From contig JAUJOT010000001.1 in assembly GCA_030447505.1 (NCBI GenBank), positions 290,295 through 354,294 on the forward strand: a stretch of DNA of 64,000 nucleotides. The letters are read 5' to 3'. Position 1 is the stretch's first letter. The number at the start of each line of letters is the position of its first letter. This stretch comes from Solirubrobacteraceae bacterium. GTDB taxonomy: Bacteria > Actinomycetota > Thermoleophilia > Solirubrobacterales > Solirubrobacteraceae. Position numbers and translations under genes: made by a program. The notes beneath the pieces were generated by a model, which worked only from the letters and a program-made list of their open reading frames with translations, ran no database searches and had not been told where the DNA came from. This document shows positions 39,191-60,710 of the stretch, piece after piece.

Positions 39191-39469
39191 TCACTCGATC
39201 GTGCTTGCTTCCAGCTCGGCAAGCTCCTCTCGGTACGGATCACCCAGCTCCTCGAGGAACTCGCGCGTGGCCTGCGCCTCCTGCTCGTCGATCTTCGACA
39301 TCGCAAAGCCTACGTGGATGAGCACCCAGTCGCCGATCGCAATGGCGTCTGCGGTCTCGGCGAGCAGGCCGACGTTGACGTTTCGGCGTACGTTGGCGAC
39401 CTGCGCCTTCGCGATGTGCAGTTCCTCGTCAACCCATTCGACGATCTGTCCGGGGATCGCTAGACACAT
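39191..39469 (-). CDS. hypC: hydrogenase maturation chaperone HypC/HupF family
   Basis: A 92-residue protein starting MCLAIPG, the HypC signature in which Cys2 carries the Fe(CN)2CO unit from HypD to the hydrogenase large-subunit precursor. It has the usual beta-barrel (VANVRRNVNVGLLAETADAI, then IGDWVLIHVGFAMSKID) and an acidic helical tail. It is the last gene of the leftward island. No hypD, hypE, hypF, hypA or hypB is in the window, so those must be encoded elsewhere. Confidence 0.93.
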   Translation of the reverse strand: MCLAIPGQIVEWVDEELHIAKAQVANVRRNVNVGLLAETADAIAIGDWVLIHVGFAMSKIDEQEAQATREFLEELGDPYREELAELEASTIE

Positions 39470-39538
39470 GACCTGACCTTCCTGATGAGACAGATACCGG
39501 AAGGGGAAACCTGGTCGTGTGACGCCATTGCCGGCCGC

Positions 39539-39929: not shown

Positions 39930-40178
39930 CTAAAGATTGTCGACCGCTCTGGCATAGCGCCCGACCTCGGGACCGGCCTGCTTGACGAGATCCCTCGTCT
40001 TGACCAGCTCTTCCGCGATCGCGTCCAGGTGCGGACCGAACTGCGCTCCGTACTCCAGGATGTCCTCGGCGTACTGCCTGATCTGGAAGATCGGGACGAG
40101 AACCTGAATGAGGATCGCGACGACGACCGGGATGACGACGGCGATCAGGATGATGTTGCCGATCCACCAGAGTGTCAT
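39930..40178 (-). CDS. small single-span membrane protein 4 of the hydrogenase island
   Basis: An 82-residue protein with an N-terminal transmembrane helix (about 5-30) and an amphipathic helical tail (YAEDILEYGAQFGPHLDAIA, then VKTRDLVKQAG). Its ATG overlaps the stop of gene 3 by 4 bp, so they are translated together. No family is recognised. Confidence 0.72.
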   Translation of the reverse strand: MTLWWIGNIILIAVVIPVVVAILIQVLVPIFQIRQYAEDILEYGAQFGPHLDAIAEELVKTRDLVKQAGPEVGRYARAVDNL

Positions 40179-40444
40179 GTCCGCCTCCCGGTCCGACGGT
40201 CGACGGCATCGGAGAGCGCGGGCAGCACGGTCGCGGCATCCGTCAGCCCCGCGTTCACCTCACGCAGGTTATGGGGAACGGCGCGCAGCTGCCGCTCGAC
40301 TGCGCGGGCGCCGAACGTCACCTCGGCGAGCGTCGAGACGATCGACCGCAAGCCCTGTGAGACGACGAGCAGATACAGGCCGAGGACGGCCACGAGGGCC
40401 ACGATCTCGACGACCGTGATCACGGTCAGCAGACCTTTGCTCAT
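40175..40444 (-). CDS. small single-span membrane protein 3 of the hydrogenase island
   Basis: An 89-residue protein: transmembrane helix at about 7-29 (VEIVALVAVLGLYLLVV), then a helical soluble part (LAEVTFGARAVERQLRAVPH) and a basic end. Its ATG overlaps the stop of gene 2 by 1 bp (TGATG). No family is recognised; the layout matches its four neighbours. Confidence 0.72.
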   Translation of the reverse strand: MSKGLLTVITVVEIVALVAVLGLYLLVVSQGLRSIVSTLAEVTFGARAVERQLRAVPHNLREVNAGLTDAATVLPALSDAVDRRTGRRT

Positions 40445-42400: not shown

Positions 42401-43284
42401 GAGTAGTTGCCCCTGCGCAGCTCCTGCGCCCGCTCCGCCGATCGGGCGACGAGCGCGTCGAGGCCACCCGCGCGGATGCGCTCGAGGTCGTCGCGCTCCT
42501 TGAGCAAGGTGCCGAGCGTGCTGCTGGCCGTCCGCGCGTCGACCTGGTGATGCCCCAGTGCGTGGAACGCCTGAACCCAGTCCAGCGTTTCGCCGACCCC
42601 CGGCGAGCGGTACAGGTCCAGCCAGCGGAGGTCCTGCACGAACGCACACACCTGGTCGGCGAGATGCTGGCCGACGTGGGGCAGCCTTGCGCGCGCGATC
42701 GCGACCTCGCGCTGCAGGTCCGGATGGTCGATCCAGTGGTAGAGGCAGCGGCGCTTGAGCGCCTCGTGCAGGTCGCGCGTGCGGTTGGACGTGATGATCA
42801 CGATCGGCGGCTCCTCCGCGCGCACGACGCCGACCTCGGGGATCGTGACCTGGAAGTCAGACAGGAACTCGAGCAGGAATGCCTCGAACTCGTCGTCGGC
42901 GCGGTCGAGCTCGTCGATCAAGAGCACCGACCCCGGCTGCGCGAGCGCCTCGAGCAACGGCCGGCGCAGCAGGAACTCCTCCGAGTACAGCAGCGCCGAG
43001 CCCCCTGCCCGCAGCTGAAGGAGCTGACGCGGGTAGTCCCAGTCATAGAGCGCGTGGTGAACGTCGATGCCCTCGTAGCACTGCAGCCGGATGAGCGGTG
43101 CCCCGGTCGCCGTCGCGAGCGCCTTTGCCAGCTCGGTCTTTCCGACTCCGGGTTCCCCCTCGACCAGCAGCGGCTTGCGCAGGCGTAGCGCCAGAAACAC
43201 GACCGTGGCGAGCCCTTCGTCCATGAGGTAGCGCTGATCGGTCAGCGCAGCGCGCAGCTCGTGAATGGAGTTAAAGCCAGGCAT
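42397..43284 (-). CDS. MoxR family AAA ATPase
   Basis: A 295-residue AAA+ chaperone of the MoxR/CoxD type. Walker A is GEPGVGKTELAKALA, Walker B is SVLLIDELDRADDEFEAFLL, sensor 1 is IVIITSNRTRDLHEALKRRC. It remodels a partner protein complex together with the VWA protein encoded next (4-bp overlap). The start overlaps the endopeptidase gene by 14 bp, so it belongs to the hydrogenase 1 operon. Confidence 0.92.
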   Translation of the reverse strand: MPGFNSIHELRAALTDQRYLMDEGLATVVFLALRLRKPLLVEGEPGVGKTELAKALATATGAPLIRLQCYEGIDVHHALYDWDYPRQLLQLRAGGSALLYSEEFLLRRPLLEALAQPGSVLLIDELDRADDEFEAFLLEFLSDFQVTIPEVGVVRAEEPPIVIITSNRTRDLHEALKRRCLYHWIDHPDLQREVAIARARLPHVGQHLADQVCAFVQDLRWLDLYRSPGVGETLDWVQAFHALGHHQVDARTASSTLGTLLKERDDLERIRAGGLDALVARSAERAQELRRGNYS

Positions 43285-43762
43285 GTACCGTCTCCTCGAT
43301 CCTTTTTACCGCGCTGGCCAGAGCACGCTGAACGGGCGGCGAAAGCCCCTGGTGAAGCTCCTCCGTGTCTGCCGGCTGGCAACCGATGATCACGACGCGC
43401 TCCGGAAGCACGCCCATCGTCTTGGCCATCGAAAGGACGCGGGCCGGATTGGCGAGATGCACGTCCGGCACATGGCCGGTCTTCTCGATCTCGGGTTCGA
43501 TGTAGAAGACCGTTCCCGGAGGAGCTCCGCGTTCCACCGCGTCGATGAGGATGAGCCCGGAGCAGCCGACCATGAGCTCCTGCAGCAGCGCGATCCCCCC
43601 GATTCCGGTCTCGATGACCTCCGCGCCCTCGGGCAGCCCGACCAGTAGCTCGGTGACAGCAGGGCCGAACCCGTCGTCGCCGCGCAGCAGGTTGCCCACG
43701 CCGGCGACGAGCACGCGCTTGGACCGAACGTCGAGCGGCTCGGAGGGGAGCGCCGTGCTCAC
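43271..43762 (-). CDS. hydrogenase maturation endopeptidase (M52 family)
   Basis: A 163-residue protease of the HyaD/HybD/HycI family, which cuts the C-terminal tail from the large subunit after nickel insertion. It has the family start VLVAGVGNLLRGDDGFGPAV, whose Asp binds nickel, then GCSGLILIDAVERGAPPGTV and VHLANPARVLSMAKTMG with the His ligand. The expected substrate is hydrogenase 1 large subunit, which has a 25-residue tail. The GTG start overlaps the upstream gene by 4 bp. Confidence 0.93.
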   Translation of the reverse strand: MSTALPSEPLDVRSKRVLVAGVGNLLRGDDGFGPAVTELLVGLPEGAEVIETGIGGIALLQELMVGCSGLILIDAVERGAPPGTVFYIEPEIEKTGHVPDVHLANPARVLSMAKTMGVLPERVVIIGCQPADTEELHQGLSPPVQRALASAVKRIEETVHAWL

Positions 43763-44634
43763 GCCACGTTCGCTGCGACCCGGAGGATGCCGTCGGTGAC
43801 GGTGATCGGCAGGACGGCCAGCGAGGGCTCGTCGGGCTCGTCGTCCACGCGCTTGCCCGAGCGGGCGTCGTACGCGCAGTTGTGCCAGGGACAGACGATC
43901 ACCGAGCTCGTGAGGCGAGCGCCGTCGAGGGGCAGCCGGGCGCCCGCCGTGGGGCAGACGTTGGCGAACGCGTACGGCTCACCAGCCAGCTTGAGAATCA
44001 GGACCGAGCGGCCCTCGACGTCCACGGCCTTCATCTTCCCCTCGGGCAGATCGTCGAATGCGCCAACCTCGACGAACACCGGCCGCCGCAGCTTCTCGAT
44101 CTGCAGGAGCTCGGGGTTGGCGCCCCCGTTGCCCGCGCCTGCCTTGGAAAGCGGCTCGATGTGCAGCAGCGGCAGCGACGCCCCACCGTTGTCCTGCTCG
44201 CCCTCGTCGCCTGCGGGGTCCAGCGCCACGACCTCCTTGAACCAGTCGAGCCGCTCGCGAAGCTTGCCCTCGATCCCCCGCCGAAGCGTCATGGCCGAGG
44301 CCGCGCAGCCGTTGCAGGCTCCGCTCATGCGAACGCTGATGACTCCGTCCTGTACGTCGACGAGCTCCAGCGCGCCGCCGTGCGACTCGATGTAGGGCCG
44401 GATCTCGTCGAGCGCCTCCTCTGCCTCGATCCGCTGGTCGACCGGCGCGAGGCCGTACATCGACAGCAGCGCGACCGCAACCGGGTGGTCGGGCCGGCCG
44501 TCGACGATCAGCTCGAGCCCTGGGCGGTGGATGTCGTCCATCAGCCCGAGCAGCAGAAGCGCTCGCTCGTCGCCCTCGCGCTCGAGCGTCTCCACGAGCG
44601 TGGCGAGCTGGGCTACAGCCTGGTCAAACTCCAT
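43759..44634 (-). CDS. NifU-like / Rieske-like fusion protein
   Basis: A 291-residue protein. Residues about 70-140 are a NifU C-terminal domain with its cluster-binding CxxC in SGACNGCAAS (Cys107, Cys110). Residues about 185-290 resemble a Rieske ferredoxin: VCPTAGARLPLD (Cys227) and VIVCPWHNCAYD (Cys248, His251). The first Rieske ligand pair is normally C-x-H but here is C-P-T, so one His is missing. Mycobacterial hydrogenase operons carry comparable accessory proteins (HucE/HhyE) proposed to relay electrons; a relay or cluster-assembly role is likely. The start overlaps the preceding gene by 22 bp. Confidence 0.85.
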   Translation of the reverse strand: MEFDQAVAQLATLVETLEREGDERALLLLGLMDDIHRPGLELIVDGRPDHPVAVALLSMYGLAPVDQRIEAEEALDEIRPYIESHGGALELVDVQDGVISVRMSGACNGCAASAMTLRRGIEGKLRERLDWFKEVVALDPAGDEGEQDNGGASLPLLHIEPLSKAGAGNGGANPELLQIEKLRRPVFVEVGAFDDLPEGKMKAVDVEGRSVLILKLAGEPYAFANVCPTAGARLPLDGARLTSSVIVCPWHNCAYDARSGKRVDDEPDEPSLAVLPITVTDGILRVAANVA

Positions 44635-45086
44635 ACCGTCTCCATGATCTCAGGCAGCTTAGCCTCGATCTCGGGACTGAAGCCTTCGCCCCAGGTCTCG
44701 TCCGCGGGCTCGATCTCAACGATCCACACGTCGTCTGGCAGCGCCTTGAAAGCCTCGGACACGATCACGAGGTTATAGAGCGAGATCGATCCCGTGACGG
44801 AGTCGCCCACACGTTCCTGGACCTCTTTCGCGTCCGGGAGCACATGGTCGTAGCGAACTGCCGTGACCGTGCCCGGAGGGCGGTCGCGCTGAACCGCCCC
44901 CACGAACACGATGCGGTCGTAGTCGGGTCGTTCGTTGAGGTTCTGCGTGAATCCGACCGGGTGATAGCCGAGATCCTCGAACTCGATGCCGTTGCTCGCC
45001 TGCGGCGCCAGGGTGTCGGTCAGCCAGAGCCCGACCGCGTTGTCGCGAAGGAAGCGATAGCCGACGCCGCAGACGAGGACCCGCAC
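44613..45086 (-). CDS. M52-like hydrogenase maturation protease homologue
   Basis: A 157-residue protein with the M52 fold start VLVCGVGYRFLRDNAVGLWL. The family normally has G-x-G-N and D-D; here Asn becomes Tyr and the second Asp becomes Asn. It later has YDRIVFVGAVQRDRPPGTVT and VIVSEAFKALPDDVWIVEIE. It may be a non-peptidase scaffold or a specialised protease paired with the classical one at 43271. It starts with GTG, 14 bp after the hydrogenase 1 large subunit. Confidence 0.75.
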   Translation of the reverse strand: MRVLVCGVGYRFLRDNAVGLWLTDTLAPQASNGIEFEDLGYHPVGFTQNLNERPDYDRIVFVGAVQRDRPPGTVTAVRYDHVLPDAKEVQERVGDSVTGSISLYNLVIVSEAFKALPDDVWIVEIEPADETWGEGFSPEIEAKLPEIMETVWSLTRL

Positions 45087-45100
45087 CCGACTACCGCTTC

Positions 45101-47011
45101 CTAATGGTCATGCGGACCATCAGACCCGCAGGCGCAGCTGATGATCTCACGCGTGATCGTCCGGTCGTCCATGTGGAGGTGCGTCGTGCACGGCATGCAC
45201 GGATCGAAGCTCCGAATCGCCCGCAGCACGTCGATGCCCTTGAAGTCCTCGGGCTTCTCGTAGTTCTCCAACAGCGGCGTCGCCATGACCGCCTCCTCGT
45301 ATGGGCCGGGGTTGCCGAAGGGGTCCTTCGGCGAGGCCATCCACGTGGAGGGCGTGAGGATCTGGTAGTTCTCGATCACGCCCTTGTCCATCTCCATGTG
45401 GTGCGTGAGGTAGCCCCGCCCGGCGCTCCACAGGCCGACGCCCATGCGCTCATCCTTCGGCACCTTGTAGGGCGTCGACATCTTGGCGTCCGGCCCGCCC
45501 TTGCGCAGCAGGTCGTAGGCGAGCAGGATGTTCTCGTAGGCGATCGCCGCGGTGAACGGAATGCAGTAGGCGCGCGCCCGGTTGCGCTCGAAGGCGCCCC
45601 AGGTCTCGGGGATCGTCCACTCGATCAGCGGGTTGGGCAGCTCGGCCTTGGGCAGCTGGACCTTGAGGCTGCGCCCCGTGGCCTCGATGTAGTCGCTCGT
45701 GCGGTAGTTCTGGTACATCGCGGCCGTCCAGATGCGCGAGTACGCGCCCGTCTCCATCGCCTGGCGATCCCAGCGTGGCGCGGTCGACCAGGAGTACTTC
45801 TCCTTCCAGCTCGTCGCCGTCGGCTTGGGGATCGTCTGCTTGTTCCAGGGGTGGTAGGGCGACAGCGGGTTCCCGGCCGGGTCGGTGGCGAACTTCTGGT
45901 CCTGCCCGCTGCCGGTCCACTCCTCGTAGAAGGCGTGCTCGACGAACTCCTCGACGCCCGCGTTGAGCATCTGGATGCTCGTCGTGACGAGCTCGCCGTC
46001 GACGATCACGCCAGGCGGCGCCCAGCGCTGCCGGGCCCAGTCGTCGGCGTTCTCGAACGTGGCGTCGTAGGCATACGGATCGTCCCACTGCCCGGGCTCG
46101 ATCATGCTCTTGGGCCGCGTCCCGATGTCGCGGTACTTGGGGTTGACGTCATAGAAGAAGTCCGCGAGGTCATCCCAGATCGCCACCGTCTTGCGGCCGT
46201 AGTCGAAGTACTTGACGACCCGCAGCAGGATCTCGTTGAGGTCAGAGGCGGTGAGCGACGCGCTGACCCCGCCGGGCACGACCGTCTGTGGGTGGGGGAA
46301 CTTGCCGCCGATCAGGACGTAGGCCTCACGCGCCAGCCGAGTGTAGTGCAGGCCCTCGAGGTAGAGCTTGCCGGTCAGCGGCGTGAGGTCGGTCATGAGC
46401 TCGGACATGAACTCGTAGCCGTGGATGGCGCGCCCCGGCAGGCGCGTGTCCAGGGCGCGCTGCCAGATCTCCGGGTTCGTCTCGCGCACCGCCTCCTCCG
46501 AGAAGTCCGGACCCGCGAGCAGCGACAGGTGGATCGGGTGGTCGTAGAGGTACTCCGTCGACTGCAGGATGTTGCGTGCGACGACGCCCATCGGGGGTGG
46601 CTTGACGCCGAAGGCCATCTCGCAGGCGAGCGCCGAGGCCATCGCGTGCACGCCGCCGCAGACGCCGCAGGCGCGGCTCGAGATGAAGATGGCATCGCGC
46701 GGATCGCGGCCCTGGAGAATGATCTCGTAGCCACGGAACAGCGTCGCCATCGAGGCGGTCTCCATGACCTGGCGGTTCTCCAGGTCGACGACGGTGTGGA
46801 AGGCCAGTGCGCCCGCCACGCGGGTCACGGGGTCGAAGTCGACGCGGCGAATCGCGCCGTTGCGAGCGAACAGCTGCCGCATCCGCTCGGGATCGTCTTC
46901 GATCGGCGTCGGCAGTGGCGTCTCAGTGTACGTGTACGGGTTTGCGACACCCGCCTTCAGCGTCGCGTTGCCCGCCGCGTCGAACTCGATCGGCAGGTTC
47001 TTAAAGCACAT
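45101..47011 (-). CDS. [NiFe]-hydrogenase 1 large subunit
   Basis: Catalytic subunit of 636 residues that splits H2 at the NiFe site. The N-terminal ligand motif is SSRACGVCGGVH (Cys115, Cys118) and the C-terminal one is SFDPCMPCTTH (Cys605, Cys608). A 25-residue tail follows the last His and should be cut off by an M52 protease. The length, the MCFKNLPIEFDAAG start and the overall pattern recall the large subunits of the actinobacterial high-affinity group 1h/1l-type uptake enzymes; this grouping is from memory. The ATG follows the small-subunit stop directly, with its GGGAGG site inside the preceding gene. There is no membrane segment. Confidence 0.95.
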   Translation of the reverse strand: MCFKNLPIEFDAAGNATLKAGVANPYTYTETPLPTPIEDDPERMRQLFARNGAIRRVDFDPVTRVAGALAFHTVVDLENRQVMETASMATLFRGYEIILQGRDPRDAIFISSRACGVCGGVHAMASALACEMAFGVKPPPMGVVARNILQSTEYLYDHPIHLSLLAGPDFSEEAVRETNPEIWQRALDTRLPGRAIHGYEFMSELMTDLTPLTGKLYLEGLHYTRLAREAYVLIGGKFPHPQTVVPGGVSASLTASDLNEILLRVVKYFDYGRKTVAIWDDLADFFYDVNPKYRDIGTRPKSMIEPGQWDDPYAYDATFENADDWARQRWAPPGVIVDGELVTTSIQMLNAGVEEFVEHAFYEEWTGSGQDQKFATDPAGNPLSPYHPWNKQTIPKPTATSWKEKYSWSTAPRWDRQAMETGAYSRIWTAAMYQNYRTSDYIEATGRSLKVQLPKAELPNPLIEWTIPETWGAFERNRARAYCIPFTAAIAYENILLAYDLLRKGGPDAKMSTPYKVPKDERMGVGLWSAGRGYLTHHMEMDKGVIENYQILTPSTWMASPKDPFGNPGPYEEAVMATPLLENYEKPEDFKGIDVLRAIRSFDPCMPCTTHLHMDDRTITREIISCACGSDGPHDH

Positions 47012-48352
47012 CTACAGTTCCTCCCGGGTGACCCAATGCTCTTGCAGCACGGGTGTGCTGGCTTCCATGTCGATGCCCTTCTGGCGCAGGATGTCCCGGC
47101 TCTGGGGCAGCGGCTGATTCTTGTAGCGCTTGGCCTGATTGACCGAGCCGCTGTACTGCAGCTTCTTATAGAAGAACGAGTTCACCTTCGCGACGGGGTT
47201 CTTCGTGCCCGAGGCGCGCCCCCACCCCGAGGGAATCTCGCCGGCGTTGTCCCACAGGGGCTCGCTGTTGCCGTTGGCCATCGACATGCGCCGCAGCCGG
47301 CGGATCGCGCCACCCGTGACCTTCGAGACGCCGCCCGAGATCGCAGACCCCGGCGGCGCCTTGTAGAACGGGCTGAACTTGTCCGGGAAGCCCGGCATCG
47401 TGCAGCCGATGCACGCCCCGCCGGCGACCATGCAGCCACCCATGTGGTTGATCGCGCCGCGCTCGACGATGTTGCACTGCACGACCGGGCCCCAGCAGCC
47501 GATCTCGACCAGGCACTCGTGGTCGCCCGGCTCCTCGGCGAAGACGCCCTCCTCGTAATACCCCGCCTTCGGGCAATGGCGATGCACCGTCTCCCCGAAC
47601 AGCCACGCCGGCCGCCCCAGCTCGTCGAACTGCGGCAGCGGCGCCAGGTTCTGGAGGAACAGGAGCACCGCGGCGACGGTCTCGGTGAAGTTGTCTCCGA
47701 TCGGCGAGCAGCCCGGGACGTTGACGACCGGGACGCCCAGCGCAGAGCGGTAGTCCTTGCCGAGGAAGTCGGCGAGGCTCATCGAGCCCGTGATGTTGCC
47801 GGCCGCGGCCGGGATCCCGCCCCACGTCGCGCAGGTACCGATCGCGACGTACGCGGCGGCGCCGGGGGCCAGCTTCCACAACCAGTCGGTGACGCGGTTG
47901 GGCTGGTCGGTCTCGGACTCGGGATCGAAGCCACCGGCTCCCATCGCCGAGAAGTAGCCGTGCTCGGTGGGGAACGCCTGATCGTCGGGCACGGAGCCCT
48001 CGAGCACCACCACGTAGGGCGCGCCCAATGTGCCGTCGACGGCCGCCCTGAACGGTCGGATGAACTCGGTGCCGGCGCCCGGCGAGAGCACCGGATGATG
48101 CAGCACCACCTTCGGCAGGTTGGGGATCCTGCCCAGCAGCAGATCCTCGACGGAAGGGTTCGTCGCACCGCTGGCCGCGATCGAGCAGCCATCGCAGCTC
48201 ATTCCCGCGATCCAGAAGACGTGGACGATGTTGAGGGGTCCGTCGGGGCTCCCGCCGAGCCCACCGAGCCCCGGATCGACGTCGGTGCCGAAGACGCCGC
48301 CGGCGTTCGGCACTGTCTGCAGCCTCTGCTTATGCCCCGTGTCGTAGGCCAT
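47012..48352 (-). CDS. [NiFe]-hydrogenase 1 small subunit
   Basis: Electron-transfer subunit of 446 residues with three Fe-S clusters. The proximal site is GMSCDGCS (Cys53, Cys56) with later GTCATWGGIPAA and NVPGCSPIGDN. The distal/medial part has HRHCPKAGYY, EIGCWGPVVQCN and GGCMVAGGACIGCTMPGFPD. The proximal motif has Cys where the oxygen-tolerant group 1h enzymes I recall have Asp (CDGD). There is no twin-arginine signal or C-terminal anchor helix, so it should stay in the cytoplasm. It is the first gene of the hydrogenase 1 operon. Confidence 0.95.
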   Translation of the reverse strand: MAYDTGHKQRLQTVPNAGGVFGTDVDPGLGGLGGSPDGPLNIVHVFWIAGMSCDGCSIAASGATNPSVEDLLLGRIPNLPKVVLHHPVLSPGAGTEFIRPFRAAVDGTLGAPYVVVLEGSVPDDQAFPTEHGYFSAMGAGGFDPESETDQPNRVTDWLWKLAPGAAAYVAIGTCATWGGIPAAAGNITGSMSLADFLGKDYRSALGVPVVNVPGCSPIGDNFTETVAAVLLFLQNLAPLPQFDELGRPAWLFGETVHRHCPKAGYYEEGVFAEEPGDHECLVEIGCWGPVVQCNIVERGAINHMGGCMVAGGACIGCTMPGFPDKFSPFYKAPPGSAISGGVSKVTGGAIRRLRRMSMANGNSEPLWDNAGEIPSGWGRASGTKNPVAKVNSFFYKKLQYSGSVNQAKRYKNQPLPQSRDILRQKGIDMEASTPVLQEHWVTREEL

Positions 48353-48489: not shown

Positions 48490-49077
48490 ATGTCGACTGA
48501 TCACGGCCGCTACGTCCCGGTCAACACCACCGTCTTGCTGCAGACGCTCGTCGAGGCCGTCCACGAGCAGGTTCAGGAGCGGCTCGCGGCGCGGGCGCTC
48601 CTCGCGACACCGTCGGCGCTCGATGCCGACCAGGCGCTGATCGGCGACAACGACCCCGCGCTGGACCGCAACCTGCGCGTTTCGGGGTACCTCGCGCGGC
48701 TTGTCGAGGTCGAGCTCTTCGAGCCTGCCCAGGGTGTCGCCGAGTGGGTGCCGGACCGAGTCAGAGCTCATACCGAGGACACAGAAGACGTCGATCAGGC
48801 GGTCGCCGTCCTCTGCGGCGAGTTGGCGCGCGCGGAACCGATCGGCAAGCCGAGCCCCGACGACCCGGCCGCCATGAGCTGGCAGGTGCCCGGTCCCGGC
48901 GGCCACGTCCGCCATTTCCTCGCACGGCGCGCGATCGAAGAGGTTCTGCGGGGCAGAGAGAACCCGATCGAGGGTGACCCGGCCGATCTCAAGCGCGCGT
49001 GGATGTACGGATTCTTCGTGCGCACCTGCGAGGAGGCGCTGGCGGATGAGGCGGCGGTCGACTCAGCCGACGGCTGA
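48490..49077 (+). CDS. hypothetical protein between the two hydrogenases
   Basis: A 195-residue soluble protein I cannot assign. It opens with VPVNTTVLLQTLVEAVHEQV, is helical and acidic, and ends with RAWMYGFFVRTCEEALADEA. It has two Cys and no metal-binding cluster. An AGGAGG lies about 10 bp before the ATG. It is divergent from the hydrogenase 1 operon and convergent with hydrogenase 2, and is the only plus-strand gene inside the block from 39.2 to 52.1 kb. A chaperone or regulator for hydrogenase is a guess from position. Confidence 0.7.
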   Translation: MSTDHGRYVPVNTTVLLQTLVEAVHEQVQERLAARALLATPSALDADQALIGDNDPALDRNLRVSGYLARLVEVELFEPAQGVAEWVPDRVRAHTEDTEDVDQAVAVLCGELARAEPIGKPSPDDPAAMSWQVPGPGGHVRHFLARRAIEEVLRGRENPIEGDPADLKRAWMYGFFVRTCEEALADEAAVDSADG

Positions 49078-49112: not shown

Positions 49113-50837
49113 TCAATGGGTGGCACAGTACATGCACAGGTCGAAGCTGCGGATCGCACGCAGCACGTCGATGCCGTGCTGAGACGGGTCCGAGCTCACG
49201 AGCGGCGTGGCCATCACCGCCGCCTCGCACGGCCCCGGCCTGCCGGCGCCATCCCGTGGCGAACCTGAGAACGTCGAGGGCCCGACGATCTGGTAGTTCT
49301 CGATCACGCGGTCGGCGAGCTGCACGTGGTGGCTCACATAGCCACGCGCGCCGCCCCAGTAGCCGGCCCCCGTGACGCCGTCCTTGGGGATCTTGTAGGG
49401 GTTGAAGATCCTCGCGTTGGGACCGCCCCTGCGAGCAAGGTCCAGTCCGATCACGACGTTCTCGTAGGCGGCAAGCGTCGCCTGCGCCAGCGCATAGGCG
49501 CGGGCGCGGTTGCGCTCAAAGGCATTCCAGCGCTGGGGTATCTGCCACTCGAGCAGCGTGGCCGGCATCTGGGCCTTGGGCATGCTCATCCTGAGGCTGC
49601 GGCCCGTCGACTCGACGAAGCTGCCGTGCGGCTGCTGGGCTGCCAGCGCCGTTGCCCACATGCGCGCCTGCGCGCCGGTCTCCATCGGGTGGCCCTGCCA
49701 GCGGGCCGCCGTCGACCAGGAGTAGCGGCCGCCGGGATCCGTGCTGCCCGGCTGGGGAAGCGTGCGCTTGTTGGACGGGTGACGCTGGGAGAGCGGGTTG
49801 CCATGCAGGTCGCTCGAGCGCGATTCCCCGCTCCAGTTCTCATAGAAGGAGTGCTCGACGAACTCCTCGACGCCCGCGTCGATCTGCCGCGGATCGGTGC
49901 TCTGCAGCACGCCGTCGACGATCGCGCCCGGCGTCGACCAGCGGTTCTCGCCCCAACTCGCGGCGTTGGCAAAGCGGCCGTCGTACGAGAGCGGGTCGTC
50001 CCACAACCCGAGGTCGAGGAAGTTCTTCGGTCCCTCGCCGACCGCGGCGAACCGCCCGTCCGCCTCGTAGAAGTAGCTCGTGAGGTCGTCCCACACGGCC
50101 ACGACGCGGCGGCTGTAGTCAAGGAACTTCGTCGCGCGTAGCAGCACCAGGTTGAAGTCGGTCGTGTCGACGGTCGAGCTCACGCCGCCCGGGGTGATCG
50201 TCTGCGGATGCGGATACTTGCCGCCGATCACGACGTTCGCCTCGCGCGCGACGCGCGACATGTGCAGCGCCTCTCGGTAGAGGCGCCCGCGGTTGCGCGT
50301 CAGCGCGGTCATGATGTCCGACACCCGAGCGAACCGGTGCACCGCGGCGCCGGCAGCAGGGGTCGCCTCGGCGCGCGTCCACAGCTCTGGACTCGTATGC
50401 CGCACGACCGGCTCGGAGTAGTCCGGCCCGGCGCGCAGGAACAGGTGGCCCGGGTGATCGGTCAGGCACTCGGTCGCCGAAAGGAAGTTGCGTGCGACGA
50501 TCCCCATCGGCGGCGGCTGGATCCCGCACGCCATCTCCAGCGCGAGCGCGGAGCAGATCGAGTGCGCATCGCCGCACACGCCGCAGGCGCGGCTTGAGAT
50601 GAAGACGGCGTCACGCGCGTCGCGCCCGGCGCAGATGATCTCGTAGCCGCGGAACGTCGTCGCCATCGCGACCGCGTCGCCAACCCTGCGGCTGCCGCCG
50701 AAGTCCGCAGACGCGTGCACCGCGAGGTCACCGCTGACGCGCGTGACCGGATCGAAGCGCAGGTTCCGGGCGGCGGCGCCGGTCGCGGTCGATTCGTTGT
50801 ATCCGTCGGGGCCGGGACGAGACGTCTGGGTGGTCAT
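49113..50837 (-). CDS. [NiFe]-hydrogenase 2 large subunit, lacking a C-terminal extension
   Basis: A 574-residue paralogue of the hydrogenase 1 large subunit. The N-terminal ligands are intact in SSRACGVCGDAH (Cys85, Cys88). The C-terminal motif reads SFDLCMYCATH and the stop codon follows the His directly, so there is no tail for a maturation protease to cut. The Pro of DPCxxC is replaced by Leu. Untailed large subunits are known in H2-sensing hydrogenases and some group 4 enzymes. It may be a sensor or an enzyme matured without proteolysis. The N-terminus is shorter than in hydrogenase 1. Confidence 0.93.
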   Translation of the reverse strand: MTTQTSRPGPDGYNESTATGAAARNLRFDPVTRVSGDLAVHASADFGGSRRVGDAVAMATTFRGYEIICAGRDARDAVFISSRACGVCGDAHSICSALALEMACGIQPPPMGIVARNFLSATECLTDHPGHLFLRAGPDYSEPVVRHTSPELWTRAEATPAAGAAVHRFARVSDIMTALTRNRGRLYREALHMSRVAREANVVIGGKYPHPQTITPGGVSSTVDTTDFNLVLLRATKFLDYSRRVVAVWDDLTSYFYEADGRFAAVGEGPKNFLDLGLWDDPLSYDGRFANAASWGENRWSTPGAIVDGVLQSTDPRQIDAGVEEFVEHSFYENWSGESRSSDLHGNPLSQRHPSNKRTLPQPGSTDPGGRYSWSTAARWQGHPMETGAQARMWATALAAQQPHGSFVESTGRSLRMSMPKAQMPATLLEWQIPQRWNAFERNRARAYALAQATLAAYENVVIGLDLARRGGPNARIFNPYKIPKDGVTGAGYWGGARGYVSHHVQLADRVIENYQIVGPSTFSGSPRDGAGRPGPCEAAVMATPLVSSDPSQHGIDVLRAIRSFDLCMYCATH

Positions 50838-52133
50838 CTACAGCTCCTCCCGGGAGATCAGATGCTCTTGCAGGACGGGGACGCTGGCTTCCATGTCGAC
50901 GCCCTTTTGGCGCAGGATGTCTCGGCTCTGTGGCAGCGGCTGCTTCTTGTTGCGCTTGGCGTGGTTGACCGAGCCGGCGTACTGCAGCTTCTTGTAGAAG
51001 AACGAGTTGATCTTGCGGACCGGGTGCGTGATGTCCGCGGCGCGGCTCCACGCGGTCGGGATCTCATGCGCGTTGTCCCACAGCGGCTCGGTGTTGGCGT
51101 TGGCCATCGACATGCGCCGCAGGCGCCGGATCGCGCCACCCGTGACCTTCGAGACGCCGCCCGAGATCGCAGACCCCGGCGGCGCCTTGTAGAACGGGCT
51201 GAACTTGTCCGGGAAGCCCGGCATCGTGCAGCCGATGCACGCCCCGCCGGCGACCATGCAGCCACCCATGTGGTTGATCGCGCCGCGCTCGACGATGTTG
51301 CACTGCACGACCGGCCCCCAGCAGCCGATCTCGACCAGGCACTGGTTGTCGCCCGGCTCATGCGAGAAGACGCCCTCCTCGTAATACCCCGCCTTCGGGC
51401 AGTGACGATGCACGGTCTCCCCGAACTGCCACACCGGCCGGCCCAGCTCGTCGAACTCGGGCAGCGCGCGGCTGCCCTCGAAGTACCCGAGCAGGTCCTT
51501 GAGGGTCTCCGTGAAGTTGTCGCCGATCGGCGGGCAGCCAGGCACGTTGACCACGGGCAGCCCCCGGGCGGAGCGGTAGCTCGGACCCAGATAGTCGGTC
51601 AATCCCATCGAGCCGGTGATGTTGCCGGCCGCGGCCGGGATCCCGCCCCACGTCGCGCAGGTGCCGATCGCGATGCACGCCGCCGCGCCCGGTGCAAGCG
51701 CCCACATCCAGTCCGTCGCGCGCAGCGGCTGCTCGCCGTACGCCGCGCTTCCCTTGGACTGTGGCCAGTCCGAGCCGCTCCCCATGGCTGCGAAGTGGCC
51801 CGGCCCGCCAAAGCTCTGGTCGTCGGGGACGGATCCCTCGACGACGACGACGTACGGCGCCTCGAGCGTTCCCTCGGCCGCCTGCCGAAAGGCCTCCATG
51901 AACCCCGCGCCGCAGTCCTCGTCGAGCATCGAATGATGCAGCACGACGCGTGGAACACCCGGGATCGTGCCGAGCGTGAGATCCTCGACGCTCGGCGAGA
52001 TCGCGCCGAGCATGGCGACGGAGCAGCCGTCGCAGCTCATCCCCGAAAGCCAGAAGACGTGAACGACTCGCCCGCCGTCCAGGCTTGTCTCGCCGCCGCT
52101 GAACCCGCCGAAGTCGCCGACCGCATAGGCCAT
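50838..52133 (-). CDS. [NiFe]-hydrogenase 2 small subunit
   Basis: A 431-residue paralogue of the hydrogenase 1 small subunit, nearly identical in the C-terminal two thirds (GACIGCTMPGFPDKFSPFYK and onward). The proximal cluster motif is GMSCDGCS (Cys33, Cys36). The ATG at 52133 is chosen because GGGAGG lies 9 bp before it and the sequence starts M-A-Y like its paralogue; an in-frame start at 52184 lacks support. It has no Tat signal or membrane anchor. The stop codon is immediately followed by the large-subunit ATG, as in hydrogenase 1. Confidence 0.94.
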   Translation of the reverse strand: MAYAVGDFGGFSGGETSLDGGRVVHVFWLSGMSCDGCSVAMLGAISPSVEDLTLGTIPGVPRVVLHHSMLDEDCGAGFMEAFRQAAEGTLEAPYVVVVEGSVPDDQSFGGPGHFAAMGSGSDWPQSKGSAAYGEQPLRATDWMWALAPGAAACIAIGTCATWGGIPAAAGNITGSMGLTDYLGPSYRSARGLPVVNVPGCPPIGDNFTETLKDLLGYFEGSRALPEFDELGRPVWQFGETVHRHCPKAGYYEEGVFSHEPGDNQCLVEIGCWGPVVQCNIVERGAINHMGGCMVAGGACIGCTMPGFPDKFSPFYKAPPGSAISGGVSKVTGGAIRRLRRMSMANANTEPLWDNAHEIPTAWSRAADITHPVRKINSFFYKKLQYAGSVNHAKRNKKQPLPQSRDILRQKGVDMEASVPVLQEHLISREEL

Positions 52134-52318: not shown

Positions 52319-53089
52319 ATGAAGCTCGCTATCGCTGGTAAGGGTGGCTCGGGAAAGACGTCGATCTCAGGCACCATGGCGCGGTTGCTCGCCCGCGACG
52401 GTTGCAACGTCCTCGCGATCGACGGCGACTCGAACCCCAATCTCGCGCTCACGCTTGGCATCGCCGCCGAACGGATGAGCGACATGCCCGTGCTGCCGTC
52501 CAACCTCTTGCGGCGCACCGAGGCCGGACCGATGCTCACGCAATCGCTCGAGGACATCAAGGCGTCGCACTCGGTGACGGGACCGGACGGCGTCGAACTG
52601 CTCGTCATGGCGCATCCGCAGCACGCCGACACCGGCTGCCTTTGCAGCATGCACGCCACCGTGCGCCGGATCATCGAAGCCGCCTCGGACGAGGATCGCG
52701 ACGTCTGCATCCTCGACACCGAGGCGTCGCCTGAGCACCTCTCGCGTGGCACTGCGAGCTATGCCGACGTGATGCTCGCGGTCGTCGAGCCCTACTTCAA
52801 GTCGCTCGAGACGGGCCGGCGGATGGCCGCGCTCGCCAACGACCTCGGCCTCGATCGCGTCGCGCTGGTGGCCAACAAGGTCAAGGACGAGCGCGAGCAG
52901 GAGGCCGTCGAGACCTTCGCCGCCAACCACGATCTGGAGATCGCCGCGATCGTCCCCTTCGACGAGACGTTCGCGCTCGCCGAGCGCGCCGGCGTGGCGC
53001 CGCTGGATTTCAATCCCGACTCGCCGGCGATCGCGCCGATCCACCGGCTCGCGATGGCCTGGGGGGCGAACGTGCATGGACGAGCTTGA
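52319..53089 (+). CDS. CooC-type nickel-insertion ATPase (CxC-containing)
   Basis: A 256-residue MinD/CooC-family ATPase. The deviant Walker A is AGKGGSGKTS at residues 6-14. The CxC motif, which in CooC binds Ni(II) at the dimer interface, is in TGCLCSMH (Cys107, Cys109). It has DVCILDTEASPEHLSRG and VALVANKVKDEREQEA. CooC loads nickel into CO dehydrogenase; no CO dehydrogenase is in the window, so the hydrogenases are the probable clients. It is divergent from hydrogenase 2 and overlaps the next gene by 14 bp. Confidence 0.9.
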   Translation: MKLAIAGKGGSGKTSISGTMARLLARDGCNVLAIDGDSNPNLALTLGIAAERMSDMPVLPSNLLRRTEAGPMLTQSLEDIKASHSVTGPDGVELLVMAHPQHADTGCLCSMHATVRRIIEAASDEDRDVCILDTEASPEHLSRGTASYADVMLAVVEPYFKSLETGRRMAALANDLGLDRVALVANKVKDEREQEAVETFAANHDLEIAAIVPFDETFALAERAGVAPLDFNPDSPAIAPIHRLAMAWGANVHGRA

Positions 53090-53441
53090 GGTCCTCCGCG
53101 TCCGCGACGAGGTGCTCCAGGCGATGTACTGGATGCACAGCGAGGGCATCTCGACGGAACCGACCGCGACCGAGCTCAGCCGCTTCCTGGCTGTGCCGGA
53201 CACCGTGCTGACGGCGTACCTCGATCGGTTCGTCGAAGACGGCCTGCTCGAGTGCGGCGGCGGACGGTATGTTCTCAGTCCGCGCGGCATGGAGAACGGC
53301 AAGCGGACGTTCGCCGACGAGATGGCCGACCTCACGCGGCCGACGCACGGCGAGTGCGACGCCGACTGCTGGTGTCATGATTCGCCGGAAGCCGCAGCAG
53401 AATGTCTCCACGAGCGGGTCGGTACCAGCCATTCCCACTGA
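53076..53441 (+). CDS. winged-helix protein with Cys/His-rich C-terminal tail
   Basis: A 121-residue protein. Residues about 8-72 form a winged helix (VRDEVLQAMYWMHSEGISTE, then YLDRFVEDGLLECGGGRYVL). The tail after residue 90 has His91, Cys94, Cys98, Cys100, His101, Cys110, His112, His119 and His121, in HGECDADCWCHDSPEAAAEC and HSH. It could sense or carry a metal such as nickel. It overlaps the CooC-type gene at its start and a PadR gene at its end, so it is part of this operon. Confidence 0.75.
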   Translation: MDELEVLRVRDEVLQAMYWMHSEGISTEPTATELSRFLAVPDTVLTAYLDRFVEDGLLECGGGRYVLSPRGMENGKRTFADEMADLTRPTHGECDADCWCHDSPEAAAECLHERVGTSHSH

Positions 53442-53817
53442 TCTCACAGCAGCGCAGGTCCTGCCCAAGAACTTCCTGCGCCCATGCCTGCTTCTGCTCC
53501 TGCGCGAGCAGCCGGCGCACGGCTATGACCTGCTCGAACGTCTGCGCCCGCTCGGTTTCAACCGCGACGACCCCGGCCGGCTGTACCGAGCCCTGCGCAC
53601 GCTCGAGACCGACGGGCTCGTGCACTCGGTGTGGGAGAAGTCGACGACCGGTCCCGACCGGCGCATGTACGAGCTGACCCGCACGGGCATGGAGGAACTG
53701 CACGCTTCGGCCGCGGCACTGATGGCAACCGACCAGATCCTCGGCGTGTTCCTCAGCCGCTACTCCGAGTTCGTCGCGCTGCAGCCGCGCAAGCGCACGC
53801 GAACTCGCAGCGATTGA
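53377..53817 (+). CDS. PadR family transcriptional regulator
   Basis: A protein of about 146 residues with the PadR winged helix: FLRPCLLLLLREQPAHGYDL, DPGRLYRALRTLETDGLVHS and a DRRMYELTRTGMEEL wing, then a dimerisation helix. The ATG at 53377 overlaps the upstream gene by 65 bp; no better start is visible between it and the domain. It lies between two CooC-like ATPase genes and likely controls this plus-strand cluster or the divergent hydrogenase 2. Confidence 0.8.
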   Translation: MIRRKPQQNVSTSGSVPAIPTDLTAAQVLPKNFLRPCLLLLLREQPAHGYDLLERLRPLGFNRDDPGRLYRALRTLETDGLVHSVWEKSTTGPDRRMYELTRTGMEELHASAAALMATDQILGVFLSRYSEFVALQPRKRTRTRSD

Positions 53818-53827
53818 CACTGCTGCG

Positions 53828-54622
53828 ATGACCACAGCAACGGCCGCTGGGATGCGGCTGGCCGTCGTCGGGAAGGGCGGCTCCGGCAAGTCCGTGGTCG
53901 CGGCCACTCTCGCGCGCCTGCTCGCGCGGCGCGGGCACCGCGTGCTCGCGCTGGACTCCGACACGCTTCCCGGATTGTCGATCAGCCTCGGTGCCGACGT
54001 GCCCGACGACGCGCCGCTGAACGCGGCCGCCGAGCGCAACGAGAAGGGCCGCTGGCACCTCGTCAAGGGTGTCGGCCCCGCGCGCGCGGTGCAGCGTTAC
54101 GCGACAGACGCACCCGACGGCGTGCGCCTGCTGCAGCTCGGCAAGACCGACAAGCGCGGCCTTGCGCCCAACAGGGCCTCGCACAATGCGTTCTACCAGG
54201 TCATTCACCGGCTCGGCGACGTGCGGTCGCTGGACGACTGGGTAATCCTCGGAGACCTCCCGGCGGGGCCGCGTCAGACCGCCTTTGACTGGGCGCCGTA
54301 CGCCCGGCGCTTCCTGCTCGTCGTGGAGCCGACATGGCAGTCGATGCTCACCGCGCGGCGCATCATCCGGATCGCGCGCGAGCAGCGCGACGACGCCGAG
54401 TTCTCGCTTGTCGTCAACAAGGTGACGCCCGAGGCGGATGTGCAGCGAGCAGAGCAGTTCCTCGGCGTGCCGCTGCTCGGCACCGTTCCCGCCGACGACG
54501 ATGTGCGCGCCGCGGAACGCGCGGGCGTCGCATTGCTGGACCTCGCGCCCGACGCGCCCGCCGTTCACGCGATCGAGCGGTTGGCGGACGCCCTAGATGT
54601 GCGTAACATAGACCGTCTATGA
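53828..54622 (+). CDS. MinD/CooC-like ATPase lacking the CxC motif (A-type, pair 1)
   Basis: A 264-residue P-loop ATPase with VVGKGGSGKSVVAATLARLL at the N-terminus and LALDSDTLPGLSISLG. It has no Cys at all, so it cannot bind metal the way CooC does. It carries ILGDLPAGPRQTAFDWAPYA, a motif shared with the protein at 60707-61555 but not with the CxC members. Its stop overlaps the next ATG by 4 bp, so it is made together with the CxC partner and may form a heterodimer with it. Confidence 0.85.
   Translation: MTTATAAGMRLAVVGKGGSGKSVVAATLARLLARRGHRVLALDSDTLPGLSISLGADVPDDAPLNAAAERNEKGRWHLVKGVGPARAVQRYATDAPDGVRLLQLGKTDKRGLAPNRASHNAFYQVIHRLGDVRSLDDWVILGDLPAGPRQTAFDWAPYARRFLLVVEPTWQSMLTARRIIRIAREQRDDAEFSLVVNKVTPEADVQRAEQFLGVPLLGTVPADDDVRAAERAGVALLDLAPDAPAVHAIERLADALDVRNIDRL
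54607..54621. promoter_or_regulatory. palindrome at the start of the CxC ATPase gene
   Basis: CATAGAC-C-GTCTATG is a palindrome with perfect 7-bp arms that includes the ATG at 54619. It could be an operator or an mRNA hairpin affecting translation. It lies inside coding sequence of the upstream gene, so chance is possible. Confidence 0.3.
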
Positions 54623-55359
54623 AAATCGTTGTCGCAGGAAAGGGTGGCGTCGGCAAGACGACCGTATCGGGCACGGTGTCGCGCGCGCTCGCGCGCGCGG
54701 GACATGATGTGCTCGCGCTCGATGCCGACACGAATCCGATGCTCGGCGTCTCGCTTGGTGTCGGCCCCGAGGAGACGGACCTCCTCGTCGCGGTGCGTCA
54801 GGGACTGGAGACCGGCGAGACCGAGCATGAGCAAACGACGGCGGGCTTCGTCGAGCGCTTCGGGCGCGATGCGCCCGACGGCGTGCGGCTCGTCGTCGCC
54901 TCCCGCATCGAACGCGCGAACCCCGGCTGCACATGCTGCGGCGTGTCTCCCGAGAGCCTGCTGCTCGAGCTCGAGTCCGACGGCAAGATCATCATCGGTG
55001 ACCTCGAGGCCGGTATCGGCACGGTGATGCGACTGCAGGAGGGCCAGGCCGACGTCGTGCTCGTCGTCGCGCAGCCGACCGCGAAGTCGCTGAACATCGC
55101 ACGGCGGGCCGTCGAGATGGCCGACGACCGCGGCGGGCGCGTGATCGTCATCGCCAATCGCGTGCGCGACGACGAGGATCTCGCAGTCATCCGCGAGGCG
55201 GTCGGCGAATGCGAGATGGTCGTCGTGCCCGACGACGCGGCGATCGCTCAAGCCGACCGCGAGGGCCGCGCAGCGATCGACGTCGACGAGAACTCGCCCG
55301 GCGTCAAGGTGCTGATCGAGCTCGCCGACCGGCTGGCGAGCATGGCTGTCCCGGCCTGA
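54619..55359 (+). CDS. CooC-type ATPase with CxCC motif (B-type, pair 1)
   Basis: A 246-residue CooC-family ATPase. Walker A is AGKGGVGKTTVSGTVSRALA and the metal motif is NPGCTCCGVS (Cys104, Cys106, Cys107). The switch region is IIGDLEAGIGTVMRLQEGQA and the adenine-binding part is VIVIANRVRDDEDL. It is very similar to the protein at 59943-60710. A nickel-loading role for the hydrogenases is inferred from the CooC family and the locus. It is the last gene of the plus-strand cluster and is followed by a hairpin. Confidence 0.9.
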   Translation: MKIVVAGKGGVGKTTVSGTVSRALARAGHDVLALDADTNPMLGVSLGVGPEETDLLVAVRQGLETGETEHEQTTAGFVERFGRDAPDGVRLVVASRIERANPGCTCCGVSPESLLLELESDGKIIIGDLEAGIGTVMRLQEGQADVVLVVAQPTAKSLNIARRAVEMADDRGGRVIVIANRVRDDEDLAVIREAVGECEMVVVPDDAAIAQADREGRAAIDVDENSPGVKVLIELADRLASMAVPA

Positions 55360-59942: not shown

Positions 59943-60710
59943 CTAGCGCTGCGACGCGGCGTACTTCTCGCGCGGGCGCGCGACGAGCCACTCGCTGATC
60001 TCGACGATCGCGCGGACGCCGGGCGACGTCTCGTCGAGGTCGATCGGCGCACGGCCCTCGGCGTCTGCGCGCGCGATGACCGCGTCCTCGGGCACGACCG
60101 CCATCTCGTGCTCACCGAGCACGCTGCGGATCGCGTCGAGATCGTCGGCGCTCGTGACGCGGTTGGCGACGACGAGGACCTTCGTCTCCCGCGCTACCGC
60201 GGCCTCCACCGCGCGGCGCGCGACCTCGATCGACTTCGGCGTCGGGTTCGCGACGACGAGCACCACGTCGAGGCTGCCGACCTCCATCCGCGTCAGCACG
60301 CCGATCCCGGCCTCGAGATCGCCGAGCACGGTACGCCCGCCGGCCTCGATTTCGCGTAGCAGCCGGTCGGCGCTGACGCCGCAGCACAGGCAGCCGTGGT
60401 CGGGCATGTCCACCCGGGAGGCGACGACGACGCGCACGCCGTCGGGCGCGTCCTCGCCGAAGCGCTCGATCAGTCCGTCGATCGTGTGCTCGTGGATCGC
60501 GTCCTCGGCTGCGCTCTCGCTGAGCTCCTGACGGATCCCGGCAAGCCGCTCGGTGCGGTCCATGCCGAGCCCGAGCGAGATCCCCAACATCGGGTTGACG
60601 TCGGCGTCGACGGCCATCACCGCATGGCCCGACCGCGCGAGCGCGCGAGCGATCGTTCCCGAGATCGTCGTCTTGCCCGCGCCGCCCTTGCCGGCTACCG
60701 CAATCTTCAT
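59943..60710 (-). CDS. CooC-type ATPase with CxCC motif (B-type, pair 2)
   Basis: A 255-residue CooC-family ATPase: AGKGGAGKTTISGTIARALA, metal motif DHGCLCCGVS (Cys107, Cys109, Cys110), and TVLGDLEAGIGVLTRMEVGS. It is close to the protein at 54619-55359. The ATG overlaps the stop of the A-type ATPase by 4 bp, exactly as in pair 1. It is the last gene of the ftsH-like operon. Nickel delivery to a hydrogenase is inferred. Confidence 0.9.
   Translation of the reverse strand: MKIAVAGKGGAGKTTISGTIARALARSGHAVMAVDADVNPMLGISLGLGMDRTERLAGIRQELSESAAEDAIHEHTIDGLIERFGEDAPDGVRVVVASRVDMPDHGCLCCGVSADRLLREIEAGGRTVLGDLEAGIGVLTRMEVGSLDVVLVVANPTPKSIEVARRAVEAAVARETKVLVVANRVTSADDLDAIRSVLGEHEMAVVPEDAVIARADAEGRAPIDLDETSPGVRAIVEISEWLVARPREKYAASQR

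What the first reader, a model, noticed from the sequence alone, without database searches (positions are those of the whole stretch)
49113..52133. Second hydrogenase whose large subunit ends at the C-terminal ligand motif
The stop codon follows the His of DLCMYCATH directly, while hydrogenase 1 has a 25-residue tail after DPCMPCTTH. No proteolytic maturation would be possible or needed. The Pro of DPC is also Leu. Untailed large subunits are known from H2-sensing regulatory hydrogenases, so hydrogenase 2 may be a sensor controlling hydrogenase 1, or an enzyme with protease-free maturation.
Basis: partly seen in the sequence, partly recalled or inferred. Interest (0 to 1): 0.75.

Follow-up and report, generated by a model that had tools for sequence, protein, structure and literature searches.

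The report
Tail-less, eroding hydrogenase twin
Beside a normal hydrogen-oxidising enzyme, these soil actinobacteria keep a second copy whose large subunit never carries the usual cut-off tail and whose hydrogen-splitting site is drifting and usually has an arginine in its main gas entrance, so it is probably a helper of the first enzyme rather than a second uptake hydrogenase.

Summary
Hydrogenase 2's large subunit (49113-50837, -) ends exactly at DLCMYCATH; hydrogenase 1 has a 25-residue tail. It is not a sequencing error: ten genomes of one order carry tail-less orthologues (TGA or TAG stop, no tail remnant in any frame). They form one clade (100/100) beside tailed hydrogenase 1, and none appeared elsewhere among about 1,100 genomes. 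Pro-to-Leu is minor (3 of 10).

The untailed clade is losing its catalytic site. Of 14 active-site columns invariant in 40 tailed relatives, 7 vary (0-1 in five control clades). One species lost two of the four Cys ligands, two lost the terminal His, two the canopy Asp, and 8 of 10 have Arg at the gas-channel bottleneck (Leu122 of D. fructosovorans; Phe110 in the H2 sensor HoxC). The small subunit keeps all FeS cysteines.

It is a tail-less paralogue of a group 1m-like hydrogenase, not a group 2b sensor: wrong clade, RH His-to-Gln signature absent, no adjacent kinase found. Best guess: an auxiliary partner of hydrogenase 1 that needs no protease. A catalytic, protease-free enzyme is not excluded, least of all in four species. 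Tail-less large subunits are documented in groups 2b, 2d, 4c, 4e and 4g, not group 1.

The parts
49113..50837 (-). L2: tail-less [NiFe]-hydrogenase large subunit, 574 aa
   Evidence: orthologues
49113..49142 (-). C-terminal ligand motif DLCMYCATH followed directly by TGA
50562..50591 (-). N-terminal ligand motif RACGVCGDAH of L2 (residues 83-92)
50433..50435 (-). CGC codon, Arg135 at the gas-channel bottleneck position (Leu122 of D. fructosovorans, Phe110 of HoxC)
   Evidence: PMC12337149
50838..52133 (-). S2: small subunit, 431 aa, all FeS cysteines kept
45101..47011 (-). L1: hydrogenase 1 large subunit, 636 aa, tail LHMDDRTITREIISCACGSDGPHDH
47012..48352 (-). S1: hydrogenase 1 small subunit, 446 aa
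51127..51314 (-). 188-bp tract of S2 identical to S1 47301-47488 (probable gene conversion)
48490..49077 (+). conserved 195-aa ORF between the two hydrogenases; belongs with hydrogenase 1 (present in genomes without L2)
43271..43762 (-). canonical M52 (HycI/HybD) maturation protease, hydrogenase 1 operon
44613..45086 (-). M52 homologue lacking the metal-binding residues, hydrogenase 1 operon
43759..44634 (-). NifU-Rieske fusion, hydrogenase 1 operon
52319..53089 (+). CooC/MinD-like ATPase divergent from S2; flank of the S2-L2 cassette
39194..39538 (-). HypC
39930..40444 (-). two small proteins of 82 and 89 aa, each with one hydrophobic segment by eye
   Evidence: fits the group 1m cluster in PMC9561532

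Best explanation
S2-L2 is an ancient tandem duplicate of a group 1m-like high-affinity hydrogenase. In the ancestor of the order, L2 lost the C-terminal tail (with its conserved CxC) and the N-terminal extension, so it is made in its final length and needs no M52 cleavage. Constraint on its H2-splitting site then relaxed: most species still keep the four cysteines, but canopy, bottleneck and terminal residues drift, and one species has lost two ligands. The small subunit with its FeS clusters stays intact. I infer that S2-L2 is no longer a stand-alone H2 uptake enzyme but an auxiliary (structural or electron-relay) heterodimer working with hydrogenase 1, with little or no turnover of its own. 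Shown: taillessness, single origin, active-site erosion, intact FeS ligands, dependence on hydrogenase 1 in gene content. Inferred: low catalysis, physical partnership.
For: One clade, 100/100 support, sister to tailed hydrogenase 1. 7 of 14 active-site columns vary in L2 against 0-1 in each of five tailed clades; 11 of 122 changed cells at otherwise invariant columns are active-site cells, against 1 of 197 in the controls, Fisher P = 1.5e-4 (cells are not independent, about 8 events). G011: Cys88Ser, Cys568Ser and Asp566Asn (window numbering) with an intact ORF. Arg at the bottleneck in 8 of 10. dN of L2 is 1.5-4.8 times that of L1 for the same species pairs. All 11 cysteines kept in 8 of 8 S2 sequences examined. 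All ten genomes with L2 also hold hydrogenase 1, at least in part, while G006 and others have hydrogenase 1 without L2.
Against: Four species (G004, G013, G043, G215) keep all Cys, the canopy Asp/Arg/Asp and the terminal His, differing among the listed sites only at the bottleneck; catalysis there is not excluded. No data on expression, complex formation or activity. G011 could be a lineage-specific loss. S2-L2 is on a different contig from hydrogenase 1 in G056, so partnership rests on co-occurrence.
Confidence: 0.48

Rival explanations
1. Catalytic enzyme with protease-free maturation: L2 receives the NiFe(CN)2CO site from the shared Hyp machinery and oxidises H2, the Arg at the bottleneck tuning gas access (for example keeping O2 or CO out).
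For: Four Cys in 9 of 10, Arg509-equivalent in 10 of 10, purifying selection overall; an engineered tail-less MBH large subunit still receives the cofactor (PMC7294309); residues at this bottleneck modulate gas and inhibitor passage (PMC11134402).
Against: Canopy Asp, terminal His or ligand Cys lost in 4 of 10, never in 40 tailed relatives; a charged residue in a hydrophobic bottleneck would be expected to hinder H2 too; other engineered tail removals gave inactive enzyme.
Confidence: 0.27
2. H2 sensor controlling hydrogenase 1, functionally like the regulatory hydrogenase HoxBC.
For: Tail-less like HoxC; changed at the same gas-channel position (Arg135 against Phe110); sits next to the enzyme it would control; PadR regulators nearby.
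Against: Phylogeny is group 1, not 2b; RH His-to-Gln signature absent; no strong histidine-kinase hit near it (weaker matches were not all listed); two of four ligands lost in G011.
Confidence: 0.12
3. Cofactor-assembly scaffold for hydrogenase 1, like HoxV/HupK, a large-subunit relative that holds Fe(CN)2CO.
For: Large-subunit paralogue with partial loss of ligands; HoxV keeps only a remnant motif.
Against: HoxV is not encoded with a small subunit of its own, whereas S2 is kept in full with all FeS cysteines; hydrogenase 1 occurs without L2 in several genomes.
Confidence: 0.08
4. A decaying pseudogene pair with no present function.
For: Faster evolution, active-site losses; broken reading frames in G033.
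Against: Intact ORFs in 10 genomes of two families; dN well below dS; all S2 cysteines kept; G033 also breaks its hydrogenase 1 frames, which suggests assembly errors.
Confidence: 0.05

Closest known systems
Group 1m [NiFe]-hydrogenase HhmSL (PMC9561532, 2022)
   Same: Adjacent small and large genes, HybD-type peptidase, FeS assembly protein, CooC-type ATPase, two small ~82-90 aa proteins; Actinobacteriota; L1 is the tailed neighbour
   Different: L2 has no tail and no N-terminal extension, and its active site is eroding; the paper's main text mentions no C-terminal feature or paralogue of the large subunit
Group 2b regulatory hydrogenase HoxBC/HupUV
   Same: Natural absence of the tail; altered gas-channel bottleneck residue
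   Different: Different clade; His kept where RH has Gln; Arg not Phe at the bottleneck; no kinase partner found
Group 1h (AH/Hhy; HofG, PDB 5AA5)
   Same: Best solved relative of L2 (E 9e-116); Glu28 position also not Glu
   Different: Tailed (MYLGKGK...), about 36-40% identity; two separate copies of this type lie elsewhere in the genome
Tail-less groups 2d, 4c, 4e (Ech), 4g
   Same: No C-terminal extension (PMC7294309)
   Different: Other subgroups; no further similarity tested
HoxV/HupK scaffold
   Same: Large-subunit paralogue with incomplete ligand set
   Different: HoxV is 383 aa, with no own small subunit and only remnant motifs

Membership tests
[NiFe]-hydrogenase large subunit (PF00374) | Homology and L1/L2 CxxC motifs | tested here: met
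   (window copy has all four Cys)
Group 1m (HhmL) | Small and large subunit genes adjacent | tested here: met
Group 1m (HhmL) | Cluster with HybD peptidase, FeS assembly protein, CooC ATPase, two small TM proteins | tested here: met
   for the hydrogenase 1 cluster; TM segments by eye; TPR, BirA and DUF1059 not found or not looked for in full
Group 1m (HhmL) | Phylogenetic position with published 1m references | not tested
   reference sequences not at hand; L2 is sister to L1
Group 1m (HhmL) | C-terminal tail with CxC after DPCMPC[TV][TV]H, as in all tailed relatives found here (own criterion, not one from the paper) | tested here: not met
   40 of 40 tailed relatives have it, L2 does not
Group 2b regulatory hydrogenase | No C-terminal tail | tested here: met
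Group 2b regulatory hydrogenase | RxCGxCxxxQ (as read in HoxC) | tested here: not met
   His in all L2
Group 2b regulatory hydrogenase | Ile62/Phe110 gas channel | tested here: not met
   Val (9 of 10) and Arg (8 of 10)
Group 2b regulatory hydrogenase | Adjacent histidine kinase | tested here: not met
   weaker matches not all listed
Group 2b regulatory hydrogenase | H2-dependent regulation | not testable with these tools
   needs an experiment

The most novel reading that the evidence does not exclude
A dedicated pseudo-hydrogenase heterodimer: a [NiFe]-hydrogenase copy that gave up tail-controlled maturation and H2 turnover, has an arginine in its main gas bottleneck, and now serves as an FeS-bearing partner that sets the affinity, O2 tolerance or assembly of the atmospheric-H2 enzyme beside it.
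Probability: 0.35. Interest if true: 0.78.

Novelty: new variant of a known kind. Interest (0 to 1): 0.6.

Why it matters
The tail is thought to be the checkpoint that ties Ni insertion to folding. A natural group 1 pair, one tailed and one not, encoded side by side in the same cell, would allow a direct test of what the tail and its conserved CxC are for. The L2 clade also gives natural variants of the gas bottleneck, canopy and ligands, and, if the favoured reading is right, would add a non-catalytic partner to the enzymes thought to draw H2 from air in desert soils.

Tried and rejected
Sequencing error or hidden tail: rejected (ten genomes, two stop codons, no remnant). Absence of hydrogenase 1 in G011: first suspected, then rejected, because its operon and the end of its L1 lie at a contig edge. 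Pseudogene reading from G033: its frames are also broken in hydrogenase 1, so probably assembly errors. AlphaFold model of L2 from five sequences: mean pLDDT 36, unusable, so no distances could be measured. One genome-contig scan gave only two loci, one of them a tailed hydrogenase from a SAR324 MAG. NCBIfam hits were all below cut-off. A first S1/S2 comparison for the window used a wrong start and was discarded (repeated with the right start).

Full report
What is there. The window belongs to a Solirubrobacteraceae-like actinobacterium (nearest named relative a Solirubrobacteraceae MAG). Two S-L hydrogenase pairs lie in tandem on the minus strand: S2-L2 (52133-49113) and S1-L1 (48352-45101), separated by a conserved 195-aa ORF on the plus strand. 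L1 ends DPCMPCTTH plus 25 residues; L2 ends DLCMYCATH and TGA. The genome has two further large subunits elsewhere, both of the group 1h type with tails of 19 and 21 residues.

The stop is real and old. Searches of about 1,100 genomes found tail-less orthologues in ten (G000, G001, G003, G004, G011, G013, G043, G056, G214, G215; plus broken fragments in G033), all in the window's order and in two families. All end exactly at the ligand motif, with TGA in eight and TAG in two, and none shows a tail remnant downstream. A maximum-likelihood tree of 56 large subunits puts the ten in one clade with full support, sister to the tailed hydrogenase 1 clade of the class, so the tail was most simply lost once. 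In seven genomes the untailed and tailed pairs are in tandem; G006, of the same genus, has the same flanks without S2-L2.

The active site is not kept. In E. coli Hyd-1 numbering (mapped from the alignment), 40 tailed relatives are invariant for Glu57, Cys76, Cys79, His83, Asp118, Arg509, Asp574, Pro575, Cys576, Cys579 and His582. In the ten L2: Cys79 and Cys576 are Ser and Asp574 is Asn in G011; Asp118 is Ser in G056 and G214; His582 is Gln in G003 and G056; Pro575 is Leu in G000, G001 and G003. Among 110 columns invariant in all tailed sequences, L2 varies in 7 of 14 active-site columns and 31 of 96 others, so the site has no special protection; five tailed control clades vary in 0-1 active-site columns. 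By cells, 11/122 against 1/197, Fisher P = 1.5e-4; shared ancestry makes cells non-independent, and by parsimony about eight changes are involved. dN in L2 is 1.5-4.8 times that in L1 for the same species pairs; dS is equal to about 1.5 times higher, and dN stays below dS. The E28 position is Ala in all tailed relatives and Ala or Ser in L2, so its loss is not special to L2.

The gas channel. The residue 47 positions after the second N-terminal ligand cysteine is Leu122 in D. fructosovorans (from its published numbering), Leu125 in HoxG and Phe110 in the H2 sensor HoxC; the HoxG and HoxC positions were counted here. Val74-Leu122 is the main bottleneck for gas access (PMC12337149, PMC11134402). 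It is Arg in 8 of 10 L2 and Leu or Met in all tailed relatives. An arginine there is unusual; whether it blocks gas or is neutralised by a neighbour could not be tested, since the structure prediction failed.

The small subunit. All 11 conserved cysteines are present in all eight S2 sequences examined, including G011. In the window S1 and S2 share a 188-bp identical tract in the cysteine-rich part of the gene, and other genomes also show blocks far more alike within a genome than the rest of the gene: probably gene conversion, though a strongly conserved region explains part of it.

Which kind. Hydrogenase 1 fits group 1m (PMC9561532) by gene layout: adjacent S and L, peptidase, NifU-like protein, CooC-type ATPases, two small proteins of 82 and 89 aa. 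Published 1m sequences were not at hand, so this is by layout only. L2 is a paralogue within this kind but lacks its tail and motif. It is not a group 2b sensor: wrong clade, RH Gln signature absent, no strong kinase hit near it in six genomes. Naturally tail-less large subunits are listed for groups 2b, 2d, 4c, 4e and 4g (PMC7294309), and the sensory and Ech types are named as the exceptions in PMC6769069; group 1 is not on those lists.

Mechanism. Taken together: L2 needs no protease, its catalytic site is drifting, the FeS subunit is intact, and the pair is always found with hydrogenase 1 while the reverse is not true. I therefore favour an auxiliary heterodimer of hydrogenase 1 (0.48) over a protease-free catalytic enzyme (0.27) and a sensor (0.12). 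The four species with an intact set (G004, G013, G043, G215) are where the catalytic reading is strongest.

Noticed in passing
45101-47011 (tail of L1) and all tailed relatives: The C-terminal tail of this hydrogenase kind carries a conserved CxC near its end in 40 of 40 sequences (e.g. REIISCACG), and in 0 of 20 group 1h tails. A possible metal-binding role of the tail.
   Followed up: partly
44613-45086: First gene after L1 is an M52 protease homologue that has lost the metal-binding residues, yet is conserved in every complete hydrogenase 1 cluster seen, next to a canonical M52 protease.
   Followed up: partly
47301-47488 and 51127-51314: 188-bp perfect identity between S1 and S2, probable gene conversion.
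   Followed up: partly
52319-55359 and 59943-60710: Four CooC/MinD-like ATPases in one stretch, three of them close together next to S2, with two PadR regulators and a CobW protein.
   Followed up: no
L048 2549-2980: In G011 a partial duplicate of the 3' end of the tail-less gene, with the same NPSMSCATH end.
   Followed up: no
48490-49077: 195-aa ORF conserved opposite to hydrogenase 1 in most clusters, no Pfam match.
   Followed up: no
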